The notes under the pieces were generated by a model. It was given only the letters and a program-made list of their open reading frames with translations, searched no databases and was not told the DNA's origin. A DNA stretch of 39,548 nt from Candidatus Nitrosopumilus sp. (lineage in GTDB: Archaea > Thermoproteota > Nitrososphaeria > Nitrososphaerales > Nitrosopumilaceae): positions 1 to 39,548 of the forward strand of contig JAOTTS010000020.1 of the NCBI GenBank assembly GCA_029864335.1, written 5' to 3'. Below, piece after piece: positions 12,642-39,548 of this stretch (positions within the stretch are counted from its first letter, which is position 1; each line of letters starts with the position of its first letter). The translations under genes were made by a program, and so were the position numbers.

Positions 12642-13880
12642 ATGTTATTAAAGGAAAAATTGATCTTGACTAGGACATCACTCCAATGCAGAGAATGTAA
12701 AAAAGACTATGATACTGCCTTCAAGTATGTCTGTGATGAGTGTTTTGGACCCCTTGATGTAAAATATAATTTTCCTAAAATTACAAAGGATACATTTTCT
12801 AACCGTGAGCACACCTATTGGAGATATTTTGAATTGTTGCCAATAGAGAACAGATCAAATATTGTCAGTATTGGCGCAGGAATGACTCCTCTCATCAAGG
12901 CCGATAACCTTGGGAAAAAGTTAGGACTAAACAATCTTTACATCAAAAATGATTCTGTAAATCCAACATTCTCATTCAAAGATAGACCTGCCGGAGTTGC
13001 AATATCCAAGGCCAAGGAATTTGGATTATCATCTGTTGGATGTGCTTCTACTGGTAATTTAGCATCTGCAACTGCAGCACATGCAGCAAAAGCTGGATTG
13101 CCATGTCATGTATTTGCACCAAGTGATATTGAGATGGCAAAAATTGCACAGGCATTGTCTTATGGTGCAAACTACATCGCAGTAGATGGAACATATGATG
13201 ATGCAAATAGAATTGCTGCACAAATTGGTGATAGCAAGGGAATGGGAATAGTGAACATCAACATGCGCTCTCACTATGTAGAAGGCTCCAAGACATTTGC
13301 GTTTGAAGTTGCAGAACAACTTGATTGGCAGGTACCTGATCAAGTGATAGTTCCAGTAGGAAGTGGCGCCATGCTTAATGCAATTTGTAAAGGATTTGAA
13401 GAATTAGGAACAGTTTCATTGCTTGATAATGTTTCTAATATGCACATTATTGCAGCACAACCACATGGATGTGCACCGATCGTTGATGCATTTAAGAAAA
13501 ACTCCAAAGAGGTAATCCCAGTTGAAAATCCTGATACTGTTGCTAAGAGCTTGGCAATAGGTGATCCTGGGGATGGAAGGTATGTGTTAAAACGATTAGC
13601 ACAATACAGTGGATTTGCAGAAGAATGTAACAACAAAGAAATTTTAGATGCAATATTACTTTTGGCTCATACTGAAGGGATCTTTACTGAACCTGCAGGA
13701 GGCGTATCTATATCTGTCTTGCAAAAGATGGTTGAACAAGGAAAGATTGACAAAAACGATAAGGTGGTATGCTATGTTACAGGCAATGGCCTAAAGGCTA
13801 CCGAATCCATCATGGAAGTTTTGGAAAAGCCCAAAGTAATGAAAGCAGACATAGCAGAAATTTCGGCGGTAGTAAATTAA
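12642..13880 (+). CDS. thrC: Threonine synthase
   Basis: 412 residues. Fold-type II PLP enzyme converting O-phosphohomoserine to threonine. An N-terminal zinc ribbon (C16, C19, C31, C34 in LQCREC and VCDEC) is typical of the archaeal/plant-like ThrC group. The PLP lysine is K113 in NPTFSFKDRPAG; the Asn loop ASTGNLASATAAHAAKAG and the phosphate loop VPVGSGAM follow, and the C-terminal YVTGNGLKATE matches. The next gene starts after one base, suggesting co-transcription with a sulfur-carrier activation protein. A related PLP reaction using phosphohomoserine or phosphoserine with protein thiocarboxylate cannot be excluded, but the motifs favour ThrC. Confidence 0.93.
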   Translation: MLLKEKLILTRTSLQCRECKKDYDTAFKYVCDECFGPLDVKYNFPKITKDTFSNREHTYWRYFELLPIENRSNIVSIGAGMTPLIKADNLGKKLGLNNLYIKNDSVNPTFSFKDRPAGVAISKAKEFGLSSVGCASTGNLASATAAHAAKAGLPCHVFAPSDIEMAKIAQALSYGANYIAVDGTYDDANRIAAQIGDSKGMGIVNINMRSHYVEGSKTFAFEVAEQLDWQVPDQVIVPVGSGAMLNAICKGFEELGTVSLLDNVSNMHIIAAQPHGCAPIVDAFKKNSKEVIPVENPDTVAKSLAIGDPGDGRYVLKRLAQYSGFAEECNNKEILDAILLLAHTEGIFTEPAGGVSISVLQKMVEQGKIDKNDKVVCYVTGNGLKATESIMEVLEKPKVMKADIAEISAVVN

Positions 13881-13881
13881 A

Positions 13882-15225
13882 ATGGCAAATATCACATTTA
13901 CCATTCCCTCAATACTTAATCAGGGGGGAGGTGAGAAGAAAATAGAAGTTTCAGCCAACTCTATACAAGATGCATTTGTAAAAATTTCTGAAATGATGGG
14001 TGATGATTTTAAGAGACGAGTATTGGAAAGCAACGGAACTCCACGTTCGTTGATTAACATCTACATCAATGGAAAGAATGCAAAGTTTTCTGGCGGCATG
14101 CAAACTACTCTGAAAGATGGTGATGATGTCTATCTCTTACCTGCAGTTGCTGGCGGTTCAGAAGAATTATCTTCAAAAGAACTTGATAGATTCTCAAGGC
14201 AGGTAATGCTTGAAGAGATTGGATATAATGGGCAACTAAAGCTAAAGAATGCCAAAGTTTGTGTTGTTGGAGTTGGTGGACTTGGAAATCCAATAACGTC
14301 AAGACTAGCTGCGATGGGAGTTGGTGTTTTAAGAATTGTTGACAGAGATATAATTGAATTATCTAATCTGCATAGACAAACTCTGTTTGATGAAGATGAT
14401 GTAGGACAAGTCAAAGTAGAAGTAGCTGCAAAAAAACTAAAAAAACTAAATCCTGATTGTAATATAGAAGCATTGGCAGTCTCTGTCAATGATTATACTG
14501 CACTTGAAGTTGTTGAAGGATGTGATGTTATAATTGATGCACTTGATAGTGTTAATGCAAGATATGCATTAAACAAGGCATGTGTGAAGTTTGGAATACC
14601 ATTTGTTACAGGTGCTGCAGTAGGAGTTTCTGGACAGATATTTACAATACTTCCAAGAATCAGTGCATGTTATCACTGTATGTTCCCTGAATTAGATGAG
14701 GATTCTATGCCTACCTGTAGTATTGAAGGTGTACATCCTTCCATTTTATCTATAGTTGGAGGTATTGAAGTGGCAGAAGCTGTAAAAGTGATTCTAGGTA
14801 AAAAACCAAGCTTGTCCGAGAAAATCCTACATATCGATATTGAAAATTTAGACTTTACTAACACCCGTACATTTAGAGCAGAAGAATGCCCTGTTTGTGG
14901 TACGGGTAAAACCAAAGAAATAGTAAAAGAAGAATTAATTCTAGAGGAACTATGTGGTAGGAATAGAGGGAAGAGAACTTTTTCTATTACCCCAACTAGT
15001 ACTTTTGATCTTGATGTTGATAGCGTAACTAATACTGCAAAAGAACAAGGATTTCTAGTTGAAAATCAAGGTGAATTGGGATTATCTCTTCGAACAAATG
15101 AAATCTCAGTCAGTTTCATGAAAAAAGGTTCTGCAGTAGTTGTTGGACCAAAAGATGAGTCTGAAGCTATTTTGTTATATAATTATTTGCTTGGAAAAAA
15201 GACAATCAAAAAAACAGCAAATTAA
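13882..15225 (+). CDS. MoaD-like/E1-like (MoeB/ThiF) fusion protein
   Basis: 447 residues with three parts. Residues 1-92 are a ubiquitin-like MoaD/ThiS-type domain ending in the expected double glycine (LLPAVAGG, G91-G92). Residues about 97-345 are a full E1-like adenylyltransferase: GVGGLGNPITSRLAAMGVG nucleotide loop, LSNLHRQTLF, catalytic Cys in MPTCSIEGVHPS, and two zinc Cys pairs (CYHC, CPVC). Residues about 350-447 are an extra C-terminal domain that I cannot name. E1 enzymes adenylate the C-terminal glycine of the carrier; here that glycine is internal, so it must be cut free, be non-functional, or the E1 must serve a separate carrier. Adjacent to thrC, which suggests a role in sulfur amino acid or cofactor sulfur supply (inference). 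Confidence 0.9.
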   Translation: MANITFTIPSILNQGGGEKKIEVSANSIQDAFVKISEMMGDDFKRRVLESNGTPRSLINIYINGKNAKFSGGMQTTLKDGDDVYLLPAVAGGSEELSSKELDRFSRQVMLEEIGYNGQLKLKNAKVCVVGVGGLGNPITSRLAAMGVGVLRIVDRDIIELSNLHRQTLFDEDDVGQVKVEVAAKKLKKLNPDCNIEALAVSVNDYTALEVVEGCDVIIDALDSVNARYALNKACVKFGIPFVTGAAVGVSGQIFTILPRISACYHCMFPELDEDSMPTCSIEGVHPSILSIVGGIEVAEAVKVILGKKPSLSEKILHIDIENLDFTNTRTFRAEECPVCGTGKTKEIVKEELILEELCGRNRGKRTFSITPTSTFDLDVDSVTNTAKEQGFLVENQGELGLSLRTNEISVSFMKKGSAVVVGPKDESEAILLYNYLLGKKTIKKTAN

Positions 15226-34204: not shown

Positions 34205-37200
34205 ATGAATAACGAAATAGGACGTAAAATAACTAGTCTTACATTAATGACAATTATGTTAGCAGGCGGTATGGTTATCGCTGCTCCATCTATGATGCCA
34301 GCAGCACATGCAGCCAACGCTAACCTATTTGTTTCCGCAGAAAACTCACAGTTTGATAACTACATGTCAGGACCTCAAGTAATTGAGGTCGTCGTAATTG
34401 ACTCAGATCTGAATGATACTAACGAAGGTGAAGGTGAACCCGATGTTACTGTAAACGGCAAAGAACTAAGAATGGTTCAAGCCACTGACGGTAACTGGTA
34501 TGGTTACTTTGCAGACAAAAACATGGCATTAATTGCTGATAAAACAGCATCAGATAATGCTGGTCTACCTGGTGAAGGTTTAGACTTTGGTTACTTCTGT
34601 AGCAAAGACTTGGTAATACTTGATAGTGCAGGAACCGGACAAAACGCTGATTTCAGCGATACTGTTGGTGTTGCAATTGATCAAGCAATAGGAGGCGCAG
34701 TACAAGCAGGCGCTGTTGGTGCACCAATAGGTGGAACCATCTCAGCATCTTGTACTGGACCAGTTGGACCAGGTACTACTACTGATCACCAAAATGTTCT
34801 TAGAGAAGCAAAACAAGCCAATCCAGGCAATTTAGGAATAAACATTCCAGCAGGACAAATTGGCATAGATGCAAATCTATGGCCTTTCATACAACTCTAT
34901 TCTCTAAACCCAACAGGTAACGTTGTCATACAGTATAGCAAAGGTGGTGGTGTTCAAACAACAACACTTACTTTTGACACTGTTGATCAATTTGCCGGTG
35001 CAAGTTTAGATAGGGCTGTATATACACCAGGTTCACAAGTTCACGCAACAATCACTGATTTATGGTTAAACATTGACCCAACTGATGAAGACTCTTGGAC
35101 ATTTGGTACCACTGGTACAGGTTCAAAATCTTCTTCAATCACTGCTTATCAAGTATTTGATGAGAACGGTGGTCCAGCTGGTGATTCAGCAACAAATACT
35201 GATGCTGATTTAACCCTAAAACTCGGTAATCTGATGTGTGAAGACAATTGTCGTCTCTTAACTAATGCCGATCTTCAGAAAAAAGGATACGTAATTACAC
35301 TTCAGGATAATGATGACTCTAGGATTAGTGGCGATGCCAATGGTCCTACAGGATTTGTAACAGGTGTTCAGAGTGTCTCAACAGACCCTCTAACTAGCCC
35401 ACAAAACCCAACATCATTCCAAACTGAAGGCTTGAATTTCATATCTACAGTTCCAGTTACGATTACAGAACAGGGTCCAAACAGCGGTGTATTTGGCTCA
35501 TATGATGAATCCGATACATCCAACATTAAAATTGTTAGCAATGCAAAGAGGGGAACCTCCGCATCTATCGATTATAATGAGACCCCAGTTACAATTCTTG
35601 TGGGATTAAGCTTTGGTAGTGTTGACATTATGCCAAATGACGATGAATGGAACTCTGGTGAAGAGATTCCAATTCAAGTTGTTGATGGTGATGCCAACAA
35701 GAACAGCAGAGTAGATGAAGACTTAGACTTGAATGATCCAAATGTTAGATTGCTTCCAGCACTAAAAACTGGTATTCCTGCAACAATGCGTGTAGCATCT
35801 AATGCAGGTACACTAGCTGTTACATTAACAGGTGCTACTTCTGGTGATCTCATTGTAGAAAGTGTTCAAAGATTCAGTGACAGAGCAATACTTACACCAG
35901 CATCAAGTACCGATGTAATTGGTATTGATGATGGTGATGATCTTGTTTTGACCATTGGAACAATGAAAAACTTCTATGATGCAGCACCAGTAAACAAGGC
36001 AAACTTCCATGGCTTTGCACTATTCAACTATGATGTTAGATCATTGGCAAATGAAGGTAACATTGATGGCTTATCCACCGTAGACATTACATTCCCACCA
36101 ACAGCCGTATCATTTACGAATCAACCCCTACAGGGATTGCTTCTGATTGATGATACTACAGCTGGTGCAAGTGTATTTGGTGGATTAGGCCCAGCTACCG
36201 CATTTACTGCTAGCTTTAACTTGGATGGTCCAGCAGGACAGACTATTTTAACTGGTACACAACTACCAGTAGTAGCTGATGTCTTTGGATTTGGTTTCTT
36301 AAATGACGGCTTAGAGGACAATGAGAGAATTGCAAGCCAGATAATCAGAATGGAGCTTGAAGAGACTGGTGATAATACCGGCATCTTTGCAGGCACATTG
36401 GAATATACCATGATTAATCAGCTTAACATTCTTGATAGTTCCATATACGAAAATTTGTCCACCATTGCTGATGATCCAAATTTCATCGTAATTGAAGACT
36501 TGGATGATGAAGAATCACCAAGAGTTAATTACTTTGACTTTGGCGCAGACGGTGTACAAACACAGGTAGCCGATCAGGAAGAAGCACCAGCTCATTCAGG
36601 TGTTGTCTCATTTGACATAGATACCTACAAGACTGCTGACACAGTTAACATTACACTTGAAGACTTGGATCTTAACGTAGACTCTGATCTTATTGATATC
36701 TATACTACTGTATCTGGTAGTTCCATCAATGCACTTAATGATGTGGTAGGCAGTGATGCCAATCCATTTGAATTGAGTGATGGAGACAGACTAGGTAGAG
36801 TACTAGATGTCACCTTTGATGATCAACTTTGGACTGCCACAAACGAAGATGTATGTACTGCACTATTAATTGCAGATGGCATTGATACCGGACTTGCCGC
36901 TACAGGCTTTAGCCTGATAGAGACAAGCAAAGATTCTGGTACGTTTGTAGGTGACTTCCAAATTCCAGCCAAATGGTGTAGAGCAGGATCTCAAACTCCT
37001 GAAACTGCAACCGGTCTCGACATTGAGGTCAACTATGTTGACTTTAGAGACGCATCTGGTGAGACCATTGAAGTAGGTGACAGCGCAGGAATTCGCGCAA
37101 GCACCGGTTCAGTAAGTCTTGACAGAACAGTCTATCCAGTACCATTTGGTGTACCTGGCAACTTTGGAACTTTAACCGGAGTAACTGCTCCTGATAATAG

Positions 37201-39548
37201 GTCCATATTCCCAATACATGCAACTGGTATTAACAACGATCTTACCGTACCTGGCAGCTTCCTGCCAAACGGTGATCTGATTGTTCACGTACGAGTTAAC
37301 GATCAAGACTTTGATGTATCTGCAAGTGGTGAAGATAACATTGCACAAAACAGAGCCGACTTACCCGTAGGTCCAGTAAAGATCTCTATAATTAGAGGAT
37401 CTGAAATTGTGATTCTAGGATATGCCGGTGGACCAAACACCATTGATGGAATAATCAATGTTGGAACAAATCTTGTCGGCAACGGCATGATTGATTCACG
37501 ATCTGAATTAAGTGAATTCAGTGGTGGTTCAGGATTTACCGATGGTGCAGTAACTATTACTCAACCTGGTGTAACTCCTGCTGTAGTTCCCGCAGCTGCA
37601 ACCTTTACCAATCTTGGTACTGGTGCAATTGCTGCATCTGAATTAGTAATTACTAATTCAGATAGTGGATTTGGCAGTGGTGTAGTAACCATTACACAGG
37701 GTGCATCTACTGCAACTGCAACATTTACTGACGTTAATGGTGACACCAATGTTGAAGCAAATGAACTACTCATTACTAATGCTGGTTCAGGCTTTACCAC
37801 TGGTACAGTTACCATTACACAAGGTGTACGTACTGCAACTGCAACATTTACCGATGATACTGATTCAATTGATTCAGCAGCAGAACTAACAATTACTCCA
37901 CCACTACCAAGTGGTGCTAACTTTGTTAGCGGTACAGTAACCATTACACAGGGTGCTGCAACTGCAGATGCAACATTCACTGATATCCCAACTGTTACAC
38001 AGTTTGGACCAATGGATGAGATTGCACCAGACGCAGGTATCTTCGAAACTGACCTTACAATTCAATATACTGACGGTCCATCTGATAGCCAATGTCCAAC
38101 AACTACGGACTTTGATAGCAGAGTAGCACTTAGACAAGGCGAATCAACCAGATTTAGCGCTGCCTCACCATCTGGCGAGAACTACTGTATCTTACAAGGA
38201 GATATTCTCCAAGTAGAATACACTGATCCAGCAGATGCATCAGGTGATGTTAACACTGTTACTGATTCTGCTACCTTTGACCTAAGAAACGGTGTATTGC
38301 AATCTGACAAATCAGTTTATATTATCGGATCTGACATGATCTTGACCCTCATTGAACCAGACCTAGATCTGGACAACGATCAGGCTGAGACATGGGACTT
38401 GGACTTGATTGAATGGGACTCTGACGCCGCAACCGTCACCATGGGTGACGCTGACGGAGAAGGAGCAGCATTTGACCCAGAACCACTAAACTTTAGAGAA
38501 ACAGGTGATAGCACTGGTATCTTCCAGATTATCATTGAGATTCCTGAAGTCTTAGCAAATGACAGGTTAGAAAGAGGGGAAGAAATTGTCCTCGAGTATA
38601 CTGACTGGGGTCCATCCGGATCTGACTTTGTAGGTGATGAAGATGAAGATATCAACTTGACACTATTCACTTCTAACTTCGGAGCAACTGTAGAGCTTGA
38701 CCAAAAAGTTTACACTTGGACTGATAAAGTCTACATTACTATTGTCGCACCAGACCACAACTTTGACAGTAACTTAGTTGATGAAATCGGTAACACTGAC
38801 TTGGATCCAATTAAGGTTTCAACCAGAGGTTCTGATATTGACAACTACAAGTTAGTCGAAACTGGTACTGACACTGGCATCTTTACCGGTGAGGTTATCC
38901 TTACTGGATTTACACATGATGCCGATGGTGACAGTACAACTGGTACAAACGGTAATGATGTAGTCTCTAGAGCAGCATCCGGTGTTGGTCCAACTGATGG
39001 ACTATTGCCAGCTGATGATGATGACGGACTCACTGTCTCCTTTGAATTCTCAGAGGATGAAACTGTAGTAGGTTCATCACTTATCAGATGGAATATTGGT
39101 GAAGTTCAGTGGCTTGAAGCAAGCTATCCAGCAAGCGGAACAGGTGTTGTAAGAGTTATTGACCCAGACATGAACTTAGATCCAGAAGCAGTCGACAACT
39201 TCGATGTCGATGTGTGGTCTGACTCCGATGCCGGAGGTATTGACCTTACTGTAACTGAGACTAATGAGGCAACTGGAATTTACGAGGGAACTGTATTCTT
39301 TACAGTTACTGATGAATCTTCTGGTCACAGACTCAGAGTCGCAGAAGGTGACACTGTCACCGCAGAATACGAGGACAATACACTACCTGATCCATACACA
39401 ACTGCAGATGAACTTGATATTACTGCCACTTCACTAATCGGTACTGTTGTACCACCTCTCGAGAGAGCACCAGCTGCTAACTTGAGAATAGTTGACGCAT
39501 TCGGTAACAGTTTAGATACTGTTACAATTGATCAACAGGTGCAAATCA
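34205..39548 (+). CDS. Giant S-layer-type surface protein (partial, runs off the window)
   Basis: An uninterrupted frame of 1781 codons from ATG to the window edge. The N-terminus has a classical signal peptide (residues 1 to about 36: basic MNNEIGRKI, hydrophobic core, then PAAHAANAN). The mature part is a chain of Ig-like beta domains, very rich in Asp, Thr, Gly and Ser and poor in Lys, with recurring D-x-G-I-F-x-G turns (TGDNTGIFAG, SKDSGTFVGD, GDSTGIFQI, GTDTGIFTGE, NEATGIYEG) and repeated strand starts such as VTITQ and LDRAVYTPG. Cysteines occur in pairs (CEDNC) suitable for disulfides. Length and style match the main S-layer protein of Nitrosopumilus. It is richer in G and C than the neighbouring genes and was not closed because the end is missing. 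Confidence 0.9.
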   Translation, partial: MNNEIGRKITSLTLMTIMLAGGMVIAAPSMMPAAHAANANLFVSAENSQFDNYMSGPQVIEVVVIDSDLNDTNEGEGEPDVTVNGKELRMVQATDGNWYGYFADKNMALIADKTASDNAGLPGEGLDFGYFCSKDLVILDSAGTGQNADFSDTVGVAIDQAIGGAVQAGAVGAPIGGTISASCTGPVGPGTTTDHQNVLREAKQANPGNLGINIPAGQIGIDANLWPFIQLYSLNPTGNVVIQYSKGGGVQTTTLTFDTVDQFAGASLDRAVYTPGSQVHATITDLWLNIDPTDEDSWTFGTTGTGSKSSSITAYQVFDENGGPAGDSATNTDADLTLKLGNLMCEDNCRLLTNADLQKKGYVITLQDNDDSRISGDANGPTGFVTGVQSVSTDPLTSPQNPTSFQTEGLNFISTVPVTITEQGPNSGVFGSYDESDTSNIKIVSNAKRGTSASIDYNETPVTILVGLSFGSVDIMPNDDEWNSGEEIPIQVVDGDANKNSRVDEDLDLNDPNVRLLPALKTGIPATMRVASNAGTLAVTLTGATSGDLIVESVQRFSDRAILTPASSTDVIGIDDGDDLVLTIGTMKNFYDAAPVNKANFHGFALFNYDVRSLANEGNIDGLSTVDITFPPTAVSFTNQPLQGLLLIDDTTAGASVFGGLGPATAFTASFNLDGPAGQTILTGTQLPVVADVFGFGFLNDGLEDNERIASQIIRMELEETGDNTGIFAGTLEYTMINQLNILDSSIYENLSTIADDPNFIVIEDLDDEESPRVNYFDFGADGVQTQVADQEEAPAHSGVVSFDIDTYKTADTVNITLEDLDLNVDSDLIDIYTTVSGSSINALNDVVGSDANPFELSDGDRLGRVLDVTFDDQLWTATNEDVCTALLIADGIDTGLAATGFSLIETSKDSGTFVGDFQIPAKWCRAGSQTPETATGLDIEVNYVDFRDASGETIEVGDSAGIRASTGSVSLDRTVYPVPFGVPGNFGTLTGVTAPDNRSIFPIHATGINNDLTVPGSFLPNGDLIVHVRVNDQDFDVSASGEDNIAQNRADLPVGPVKISIIRGSEIVILGYAGGPNTIDGIINVGTNLVGNGMIDSRSELSEFSGGSGFTDGAVTITQPGVTPAVVPAAATFTNLGTGAIAASELVITNSDSGFGSGVVTITQGASTATATFTDVNGDTNVEANELLITNAGSGFTTGTVTITQGVRTATATFTDDTDSIDSAAELTITPPLPSGANFVSGTVTITQGAATADATFTDIPTVTQFGPMDEIAPDAGIFETDLTIQYTDGPSDSQCPTTTDFDSRVALRQGESTRFSAASPSGENYCILQGDILQVEYTDPADASGDVNTVTDSATFDLRNGVLQSDKSVYIIGSDMILTLIEPDLDLDNDQAETWDLDLIEWDSDAATVTMGDADGEGAAFDPEPLNFRETGDSTGIFQIIIEIPEVLANDRLERGEEIVLEYTDWGPSGSDFVGDEDEDINLTLFTSNFGATVELDQKVYTWTDKVYITIVAPDHNFDSNLVDEIGNTDLDPIKVSTRGSDIDNYKLVETGTDTGIFTGEVILTGFTHDADGDSTTGTNGNDVVSRAASGVGPTDGLLPADDDDGLTVSFEFSEDETVVGSSLIRWNIGEVQWLEASYPASGTGVVRVIDPDMNLDPEAVDNFDVDVWSDSDAGGIDLTVTETNEATGIYEGTVFFTVTDESSGHRLRVAEGDTVTAEYEDNTLPDPYTTADELDITATSLIGTVVPPLERAPAANLRIVDAFGNSLDTVTIDQQVQI
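37529..37984 (+). repeat. Tandem array of four ~43-residue repeats inside the S-layer gene
   Basis: VTITQ recurs at 37550, 37685, 37808 and 37937 (residues 1116, 1161, 1202, 1245), periods 135, 123 and 129 nt, all in frame. The unit runs SGFxxGxVTITQGxxTATATFTD followed by an acidic linker ending AxELxITN. The nucleotide sequence is also similar between units (ACCATTACACA in three of them), so the duplication is fairly recent. The first unit is the most divergent (VTITQPGVTPAVVPAAATFTN). Confidence 0.85.

What the first reader, a model, noticed from the sequence alone, without database searches (positions are those of the whole stretch)
13882..15225. Ubiquitin-like carrier fused in front of its own E1 enzyme
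A MoaD/ThiS-type domain with GG at 91-92 is fused directly to an intact E1-like domain and an unknown C-terminal domain. The chemistry of these carriers needs a free C-terminal glycine; here it is internal, so a protease must release it, or the domain serves regulation. The immediate neighbour is threonine synthase, and known thiocarboxylate systems (CysO, HcyD types) donate sulfur to phospho-amino acid enzymes of the same PLP fold. The pair might be a sulfur-transfer module, with the fused carrier as an in-cis switch.
Basis: partly seen in the sequence, partly recalled or inferred. Interest (0 to 1): 0.6.

Follow-up and report, generated by a model that had tools for sequence, protein, structure and literature searches.

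The report
Archaeal sulfur-carrier partner of threonine-synthase-like enzyme
In ammonia-oxidising archaea a ubiquitin-like sulfur carrier is fused to the enzyme that activates it and is always encoded beside a remodelled threonine-synthase-like enzyme; the set probably makes homocysteine, the methionine precursor for which these abundant microbes show no known enzyme.

Summary
[quoted passage not shown] The architecture is already known (Makarova & Koonin 2010, 'Ubl-E1-TBP in Thaumarchaeota'). What appears unreported is its partner. The adjacent 'thrC' is a second copy (ThrC2); a separate threonine synthase lies elsewhere in the genome. All 33 ThrC2 sequences compared have lost the threonine-synthase phosphate-site motif. 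ThrC2 and the fusion are adjacent in every ammonia-oxidiser examined and are absent together from five near-complete genomes. In more distant archaea, and in one actinomycete, ThrC2 is followed by a separate carrier, mostly ending freely in GG. Two archaeal operons read thrC2, carrier, homoserine dehydrogenase, E1, sulfite reductase, TusA. Ammonia oxidisers lack every known homocysteine-forming family tested but keep methionine synthase. Best reading: a protease frees the carrier after GG, the E1 charges it with sulfur, and ThrC2 passes the sulfur to activated homoserine, giving homocysteine: a threonine-synthase-fold counterpart of CysO/CysM and HcyS/MetY. The gene linkage is shown; chemistry, substrate and cleavage are inferred. 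The 'in-cis switch' is not supported.

The parts
12642..13880 (+). thrC2: fold-type II PLP enzyme, threonine-synthase paralogue with remodelled phosphate site; proposed carrier-thiocarboxylate-dependent homocysteine synthase
   Evidence: PF00291 and TIGR00260/NF006050 matches; ThrC2 group separates from threonine synthases on the tree, SH-aLRT 95; motif changes in 33 of 33; stop codon one base before the fusion's ATG
13882..14157 (+). Ubiquitin-like (MoaD/ThiS/CysO-type) carrier domain, residues 1-92
   Evidence: PF02597, NF041918 SAMP1 and TIGR01687 matches (SAMP1 and TIGR01687 below their cut-offs); best solved relative 3dwg chain C
14152..14157 (+). Codons of Gly91-Gly92, the carrier's functional C-terminus and presumed cleavage site (GG|S)
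   Evidence: Invariant in 113 of 113 fusions; P1' is Ser in about 95%; unfused orthologues mostly end at this GG
14158..14190 (+). Linker, residues 93-103, variable in length across relatives; region 88-111 predicted disordered
   Evidence: Predicted pLDDT below 50 at residues 88-111; linker lengths from alignments
14191..14892 (+). E1-like adenylyltransferase (ThiF/MoeB type), residues 104-337; the only PF00899 protein found in the genome
   Evidence: invariant catalytic and zinc-site residues in alignment A2
14716..14718 (+). Codon of Cys279, aligned with the ThiF cysteine that links to its carrier (role from my own knowledge)
   Evidence: Alignment to E. coli ThiF; invariant in A2
14935..15201 (+). 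TBP-like C-terminal domain with the conserved ELCGR motif (Cys358); a possible sulfur relay site (inference)
   Evidence: AlphaFold model pLDDT 83 with TBP-like strand order, Foldseek top hits are TATA-binding proteins, weak E-values; motif in A2/A3

Best explanation
thrC2 and the fusion form a two-gene sulfur-carrier unit that most likely makes homocysteine. Steps: (1) a protease, probably one of the two JAMM metalloproteases, cuts the chain between Gly92 and Ser93, freeing a carrier with a C-terminal GG and an E1 with its TBP-like domain; (2) the E1 adenylates the carrier's terminal glycine and sulfur is loaded as a thiocarboxylate, with TusA or a cysteine of the E1 as relay; (3) ThrC2, a PLP enzyme that has lost the threonine-synthase phosphate site, joins this sulfur to an activated homoserine, giving a carrier-homocysteine adduct; (4) the adduct rearranges and is cut by a JAMM protein to release homocysteine for methionine synthase. 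Shown: the gene unit and its conservation, the active-site changes, the invariant GG, the free-ending unfused form, the operon partners, and the absence of the other known homocysteine-forming families tested. Inferred: the cleavage, the thiocarboxylate, the substrate and the product.
For: ThrC2 is a second copy: the genome has a separate threonine synthase on C48 (TIGR00260 192 bits, above cut-off) that keeps the NSVNPFRIEGQKT motif. In all 33 ThrC2 sequences the residues aligned with Thr88, Ser155, Arg160 and Asn188 of the T. thermophilus enzyme are replaced (STGNL; one-residue insertion and YYVEGSKT; SGA). ThrC2 and the fusion occur together in 39 of 44 family genomes and are both absent from the other 5, which are 98-99% complete and keep the ordinary threonine synthase. 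In 77 of 80 named loci the full fusion follows thrC2 directly; the other 3 are cut by contig ends. In distant relatives, including the actinomycete Nonomuraea, a carrier lies within 140 nt downstream in 22 of 23 evaluable loci; most end freely in GG/GGG. Control: no carrier or E1 near three canonical ThrC loci. Operons in G213 and G051 read thrC2-carrier-homoserine dehydrogenase-E1-sulfite reductase-TusA; G219 has the first four; G055 and G039 have thrC2-carrier-E1-sulfite reductase-TusA. This matches the known class with MetY in place of ThrC2 (row 4e of PMC1779556, which includes Wolinella). No full-length MetB/MetC/MetY family member and no DUF39 protein in 20 ammonia-oxidiser genomes, while methionine synthase is present: PF02574 in 21 of 24 genomes and MetE-type PF01717 in the three that lack it. 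A CysK/CysM-like enzyme or a CysK-like 516-aa paralogue was found in all 16 f1-f3 genomes checked, so cysteine has other candidate enzymes. Fused MoaX is cut at GG|S and inactive uncut (PMC4326299); a JAMM cuts MoaD-MoaE in Deinococcus, and HvJAMM1 cuts linear SAMP1 fusions (PMC8832034). The linker region is predicted disordered.
Against: No biochemistry. Both JAMM genes are kept in the five genomes that lost the pair, so they have other duties and their link is indirect. Homoserine dehydrogenase beside a thrC gene is also what a genuine threonine operon would show. Some non-ammonia-oxidisers with ThrC2 also have MetB/MetY (G085) or DUF39 (G043), so the role may differ there. The five genomes without the pair keep methionine synthase and need another homocysteine source or uptake. 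The roles of the threonine-synthase phosphate-site residues are from my own knowledge, and Asn188 is not kept in the genome's own threonine synthase either. As the only E1 found in the genome, the protein may also serve tRNA thiolation or protein modification.
Confidence: 0.55

Rival explanations
1. Same sulfur-carrier unit, but the product is cysteine: ThrC2 uses O-phosphoserine (or a like substrate) as CysM does with CysO.
For: CysM-CysO-Mec+ is the best-studied precedent, and the nearest solved relative of the carrier is 3dwg chain C (CysO by my own knowledge). Cysteate synthase is a known threonine-synthase relative that uses phosphoserine (own knowledge).
Against: A CysK/CysM-like enzyme or a CysK-like paralogue is present in all 16 f1-f3 genomes checked, with or without ThrC2, and in this genome the CysK/M-like gene lies about 8 kb from a sulfite/nitrite-reductase-family gene on contig C31. 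Three ThrC2 operons hold homoserine dehydrogenase, and homocysteine, not cysteine, is the amino acid lacking a known enzyme.
Confidence: 0.2
2. ThrC2 is simply a second threonine synthase (or another non-sulfur PLP enzyme); the carrier-E1 serves tRNA thiolation or protein modification, and the genes only share an operon.
For: Current family models name it threonine synthase. The genome's only E1 would be expected to serve other carrier tasks. NcsA-dependent tRNA thiolation in Haloferax is associated with this kind of system (PMC4048286, abstract).
Against: A canonical ThrC is also present; the phosphate-site motif is lost in 33 of 33; the carrier, not only the E1, follows ThrC2 in archaea and in an actinomycete; sulfite reductase and TusA join the operon; the pair is lost as a unit.
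Confidence: 0.15
3. The fused carrier is never cleaved: the GG tail folds back into the E1 or ThrC2 pocket as a regulatory element, and a separate carrier does the chemistry.
For: Iyer et al. 2006 suggested a different role for carrier domains fused to bacterial ThiF where a stand-alone ThiS is also present (PMC1779556).
Against: Only one other PF02597 carrier was found in this genome, itself fused (Ubl-Cgi121), so no free carrier is left to serve. GG and the tail are the best conserved part. The unfused form mostly ends at GG, and one relative (G197) has the carrier split off by a frame change just after GG.
Confidence: 0.08

Closest known systems
Ubl-E1-TBP fusion of Thaumarchaeota (Makarova & Koonin 2010, PMC2948915)
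   Same: The same protein architecture in the same lineage; this window is a member.
   Different: That paper's main text has no mention of threonine synthase; no link to ThrC2, homocysteine, an unfused form or a cleavage site was found there.
CysM-CysO-Mec+ with MoeZ (Mycobacterium, protein-thiocarboxylate cysteine synthesis)
   Same: MoaD-like carrier, MoeB-type E1, fold-type II PLP enzyme, JAMM protease in the genome.
   Different: PLP enzyme of the threonine-synthase branch, carrier fused to its E1, context pointing to homoserine rather than serine, E1 without a rhodanese domain.
HcyS-HcyF-HcyD-MetY (Wolinella, protein-thiocarboxylate homocysteine synthesis) and operon class 4e of Iyer et al. 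2006 (PMC1779556)
   Same: Carrier plus E1 lacking rhodanese, with sulfite reductase and a TusA/SirA protein; homoserine-derived acceptor.
   Different: MetY (fold type I, PF01053) is absent from the 20 ammonia-oxidiser genomes and ThrC2 stands in its place; no JAMM gene beside thrC2 in most loci.
MoaX of M. tuberculosis and MoaD-MoaE of Deinococcus
   Same: Carrier with internal GG fused to its partner enzyme; MoaX is cut at GG|S, and a JAMM cuts MoaD-MoaE (PMC4326299, PMC8832034).
   Different: The partner is MoaE, not the E1; the pathway is molybdenum cofactor.
N-terminal Ub-like + ThiF fusions of bacteria (Iyer et al. 2006)
   Same: Carrier domain in front of an E1.
   Different: Most sit in thiamine operons together with a stand-alone ThiS.

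Membership tests
Ubl-E1-TBP fusion (Makarova & Koonin 2010) | Beta-grasp carrier, E1 core and TBP-like C-terminal domain in one chain, Thaumarchaeota | tested here: met
   (TBP-like by fold, weak E-values but a consistent list); Nitrosopumilus relatives
Protein-thiocarboxylate amino-acid synthesis | Carrier with C-terminal GG | tested here: met
   GG invariant but internal in the fusion; at the free C-terminus in most unfused orthologues
Protein-thiocarboxylate amino-acid synthesis | Intact adenylating E1 acting on the carrier | tested here: inconclusive
   Motifs intact and linked to the carrier; activity not testable here
Protein-thiocarboxylate amino-acid synthesis | Partner PLP enzyme encoded with the carrier | tested here: met
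   ThrC2 next to the carrier in 22 of 23 evaluable distant loci and in all uncut ammonia-oxidiser loci
Protein-thiocarboxylate amino-acid synthesis | Thiocarboxylate formed and sulfur transferred to the amino acid | not testable with these tools
   Needs mass spectrometry and enzyme assays
CysM/CysO/Mec+ (cysteine) | PLP enzyme of the CysK/CysM family | tested here: not met
   ThrC2 is of the threonine-synthase branch; its best PDB hits are all threonine synthases
HcyS/HcyF/HcyD/MetY (homocysteine) | MetY (PF01053) as the acceptor enzyme | tested here: not met
   No full-length PF01053 in family f1-f3 genomes
Threonine synthase (ThrC) | Conserved substrate-phosphate motif STGNT / NSxNPxR(I/L)EGQKT | tested here: not met
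   Lost in 33 of 33 ThrC2, kept in the canonical paralogues
SAMP/UbaA protein modification system | Carrier conjugated to lysines of target proteins | not testable with these tools
   NF047750 UbaA and NF041918 SAMP1 models match below cut-off
Cleaved carrier fusions (MoaX type) | Cut after GG by a protease, probably JAMM | not testable with these tools
   JAMM present in all 28 genomes checked, with the HSHP(x6)S(x2)D motif in the two own proteins; linker region predicted disordered

The most novel reading that the evidence does not exclude
ThrC2 with its dedicated carrier is a previously unrecognised, widespread route to homocysteine, shared by archaea and some actinomycetes, in which a threonine-synthase-type enzyme takes sulfur from a protein thiocarboxylate. 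In ammonia-oxidising archaea the carrier is made as a precursor fused to its own E1 and released by proteolysis, and this is how some of the ocean's most abundant archaea make methionine.
Probability: 0.42. Interest if true: 0.78.

Novelty: new variant of a known kind. Interest (0 to 1): 0.62.

Why it matters
Ammonia-oxidising archaea grow on mineral salts (own knowledge), so they must make methionine, yet none of the homocysteine-forming families tested is present in them. A 2018 study stated that at least one homocysteine pathway remains to be found in some autotrophs, naming organisms other than these (PMC5764234). A defined two-gene candidate makes the question testable, would correct the 'threonine synthase' label on ThrC2 genes, predicts methionine or homocysteine dependence in lineages that lost the pair, and gives a third PLP-enzyme partner for ubiquitin-like sulfur carriers, with a carrier that is born fused to its E1.

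Tried and rejected
JAMM co-occurrence as proof of processing: rejected, because both JAMM genes persist in genomes lacking the E1. MetH and sulfite reductase co-loss with the pair: not seen; both are kept. Weak PF01053 matches as MetY: rejected, because they cover only about 120 of 381 positions inside other ~380-aa frames. DUF39 (PF01837) route: absent from ammonia oxidisers. Papers joining threonine synthase with thiocarboxylate and ubiquitin-like proteins: none in the searchable library; searches on homocysteine or cysteine in ammonia-oxidising archaea gave nothing useful; a search for the threonine-synthase phosphate-site residues found none. The Wolinella HcyS paper is not held. The L197 'PGGG' is a pattern-matching artefact; its junction is PAVAGG-S.

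Full report
OBSERVATION. The ORF 13882-15225 encodes 447 aa and starts one base after the stop codon of the upstream thrC-like gene. Pfam finds ThiS (ending at residue 92) and ThiF (104-337), both above cut-off. The carrier's best solved relative is 3dwg chain C (E 2.7e-12), which I know as M. tuberculosis CysO. The E1's best relatives are ThiF and MoeB, with nucleotide loop, zinc cysteines and the ThiF-type cysteine in place. It is the only PF00899 protein found in the genome. The only other PF02597 carrier is an N-terminal domain of the KEOPS subunit Cgi121, also with an internal GG; that fusion too is known (PMC2948915). So both recognisable carriers in this genome are internal.

C-TERMINAL DOMAIN. 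An AlphaFold model of the last 108 residues (mean pLDDT 83) has the element order E-E-H-E-E-E-E-H, and its best solved matches are TATA-binding proteins (probability up to 0.99, but E-values only about 0.05 and TM about 0.47). This agrees with the published 'Ubl-E1-TBP' description. The domain carries a conserved ELCGR motif; a sulfur-relay role for its cysteine is my inference.

ORGANISM. Named relatives are Nitrosopumilus and other Nitrosopumilales; the window's genome is 1.95 Mb in 58 contigs.

PARTNER GENE. Family models call the neighbour threonine synthase. But the genome holds six PLP fold-type II proteins, including another gene passing the threonine-synthase cut-off (contig C48, TIGR00260 192 bits against 167.1), a threonine ammonia-lyase, TrpB, a CysK/CysM-like protein and a CysK-like 516-aa protein. 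The window protein ('ThrC2') groups with distant archaeal relatives apart from threonine synthases (SH-aLRT 95, 33 against 5 rows; quick tree). Every one of the 33 lacks the motif pattern of threonine synthases: STGNT becomes STGNL; NSxNPxR(I/L)EGQKT becomes N(I/V)NxR(P/S)YYVEGSKT with one extra residue (with minor variants); PVGNAGN becomes P(V/M)(G/A)SGA(M/L). From my own knowledge of the T. thermophilus enzyme, Thr88, Ser155, Arg160 and Asn188 bind the substrate phosphate; I could not confirm this from a held paper, and Asn188 is not kept in this genome's own threonine synthase.

CONSERVATION OF THE PAIR. In 300 genomes of the phylum the fusion and ThrC2 were searched separately. ThrC2 matches are bimodal: 46-100% identity, against at most 43% for canonical ThrC. 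In the window's family, 39 of 44 genomes have both and 5 (G068, G263, G203, G221, G291; four genera, 98-99% complete) have neither, while keeping the ordinary threonine synthase. In 80 named loci found with a ThrC2 alignment, 77 have the complete fusion directly downstream and the other 3 are cut by contig ends. The pair is adjacent, so joint loss may be single deletions; I count it as about four events, not as 44 independent data points.

UNFUSED FORM. In distant families thrC2 is followed within 140 nt by a carrier in nearly all cases (22 of 23 evaluable loci including the actinomycete Nonomuraea gerenzanensis; two of the 22 are fused to an E1). Most separate carriers end exactly in GG or GGG; a few have short tails after GG (for example GGG-NPSIF, GG-LV), as in the processed carriers HcyS and QbsE (own knowledge). 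The E1 follows next, or after one gene, in most. On the ThrC2 tree the fused state needs three changes, so fusion arose more than once or was lost. In the fused proteins the GG and its tail are the best conserved segment (113 of 113), the next residue is Ser in about 95%, and linker length varies. The AlphaFold model of the fusion has segments with pLDDT below 50 only at 88-111 and at the last seven residues. In G197 the frame changes just after GG, splitting carrier and E1; a sequencing error is not excluded.

OPERON PARTNERS. In G213 and G051 the order is thrC2, carrier, homoserine dehydrogenase, E1, sulfite/nitrite-reductase-family protein, TusA; in G051 a cysteine desulfurase and a DsrE-like gene lie divergently. 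G219 has thrC2, carrier, homoserine dehydrogenase, E1. G055 and G039 have thrC2, carrier, E1, reductase and a following small gene, identified as TusA in G055. This mirrors class 4e of Iyer et al. 2006, in which the E1 lacks a rhodanese domain, a SirA/TusA protein is present, and the amino-acid enzyme is O-acetylhomoserine sulfhydrylase (PMC1779556); Wolinella, whose protein-thiocarboxylate methionine pathway is cited in PMC5764234, belongs to it. Threonine synthase is not mentioned in that paper. The canonical ThrC loci examined have no carrier or E1 nearby.

THE METABOLIC GAP. In 20 ammonia-oxidiser genomes no full-length PF01053 protein (MetB/MetC/MetY) and no DUF39 protein was found, while controls and other orders gave strong hits. 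Methionine synthase is present, as PF02574 or as PF01717, as is a sulfite-reductase-family protein. A CysK/M-like protein or the CysK-like paralogue was found in all 16 f1-f3 genomes checked, so cysteine has other candidates. Homocysteine does not. Price et al. 2018 noted that at least one homocysteine route remains unknown, naming other organisms (PMC5764234).

MECHANISM. Most likely: cleavage at Gly92-Ser93 by a JAMM protease; adenylation and thiocarboxylation of the carrier by the E1; transfer to an activated homoserine on ThrC2; release of homocysteine by a JAMM protein. Precedents: MoaX is cut at Gly82-Ser83 and needs it (PMC4326299); DRJAMM cuts MoaD-MoaE, and HvJAMM1 cuts linear SAMP1 fusions (PMC8832034). 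The genome's two JAMM proteins have the HSHP(x6)S(x2)D motif; one resembles archaeal desampylase, below that model's cut-off. They are retained where the E1 is lost, so they are not dedicated. In relatives an E1-JAMM pair (G051, contig C16) and a PLP enzyme-JAMM pair (G032) occur.

LIMITS. No biochemistry; the acceptor (O-phosphohomoserine or another activated homoserine) is unknown; cysteine as product is not excluded; the E1 may have other clients such as tRNA thiolation, which I did not test. Absence claims rest on profile searches of draft genomes. The bacterial distribution was seen in one actinomycete only.

Noticed in passing
L003:982-1755 (own genome, contig C30): The genome's only other carrier domain is fused in front of KEOPS subunit Cgi121, with an internal GG (VIHGGTSKK); known since 2010, but it means both recognisable carriers here need processing or are not used as carriers.
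   Followed up: partly
L239:6001-7506 (Nonomuraea gerenzanensis): An actinomycete carries a ThrC2 orthologue (44%) followed about 30 nt later by a stand-alone carrier ending PAVAGG; the pair is not confined to archaea. The record is unannotated at this place.
   Followed up: partly
L041 (G197), just after the carrier's GG: In one relative of the same order the reading frame changes immediately after GG, splitting carrier (tail NSKGYGYG) from E1; natural fission, programmed frameshift or sequencing error.
   Followed up: partly
L232, L233, L234, L235: Separate carriers with short tails after GG (NPSIF, TSKIALIIV, TANINTGLQAA, LV), which would need trimming before activation.
   Followed up: no
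L231:11896-13499 (G032) and L055:3099-4630 (G051): A PLP fold-II enzyme directly followed by a JAMM gene, and an E1 directly followed by a JAMM gene: further sulfur-carrier clusters in relatives.
   Followed up: no
L089:2292-3839 (own genome, contig C54): A 516-aa CysK-like protein with long insertions and an extra C-terminal part; present in most genomes of the family checked, not seen in f2/f3; possible cysteine synthase of unusual build.
   Followed up: no
window 34205-39547 (+): An open frame of at least 1781 aa running off the contig end, signal-like start, acidic repeats; GC of this part 41.5% against 32.5% for the window; looks like a surface-layer type protein.
   Followed up: no
G068, G263, G203, G221, G291: Five near-complete genomes of the family (1.2-1.5 Mb) with no match to the fusion query and no ThrC2, but with methionine synthase and two JAMM genes each.
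   Followed up: partly
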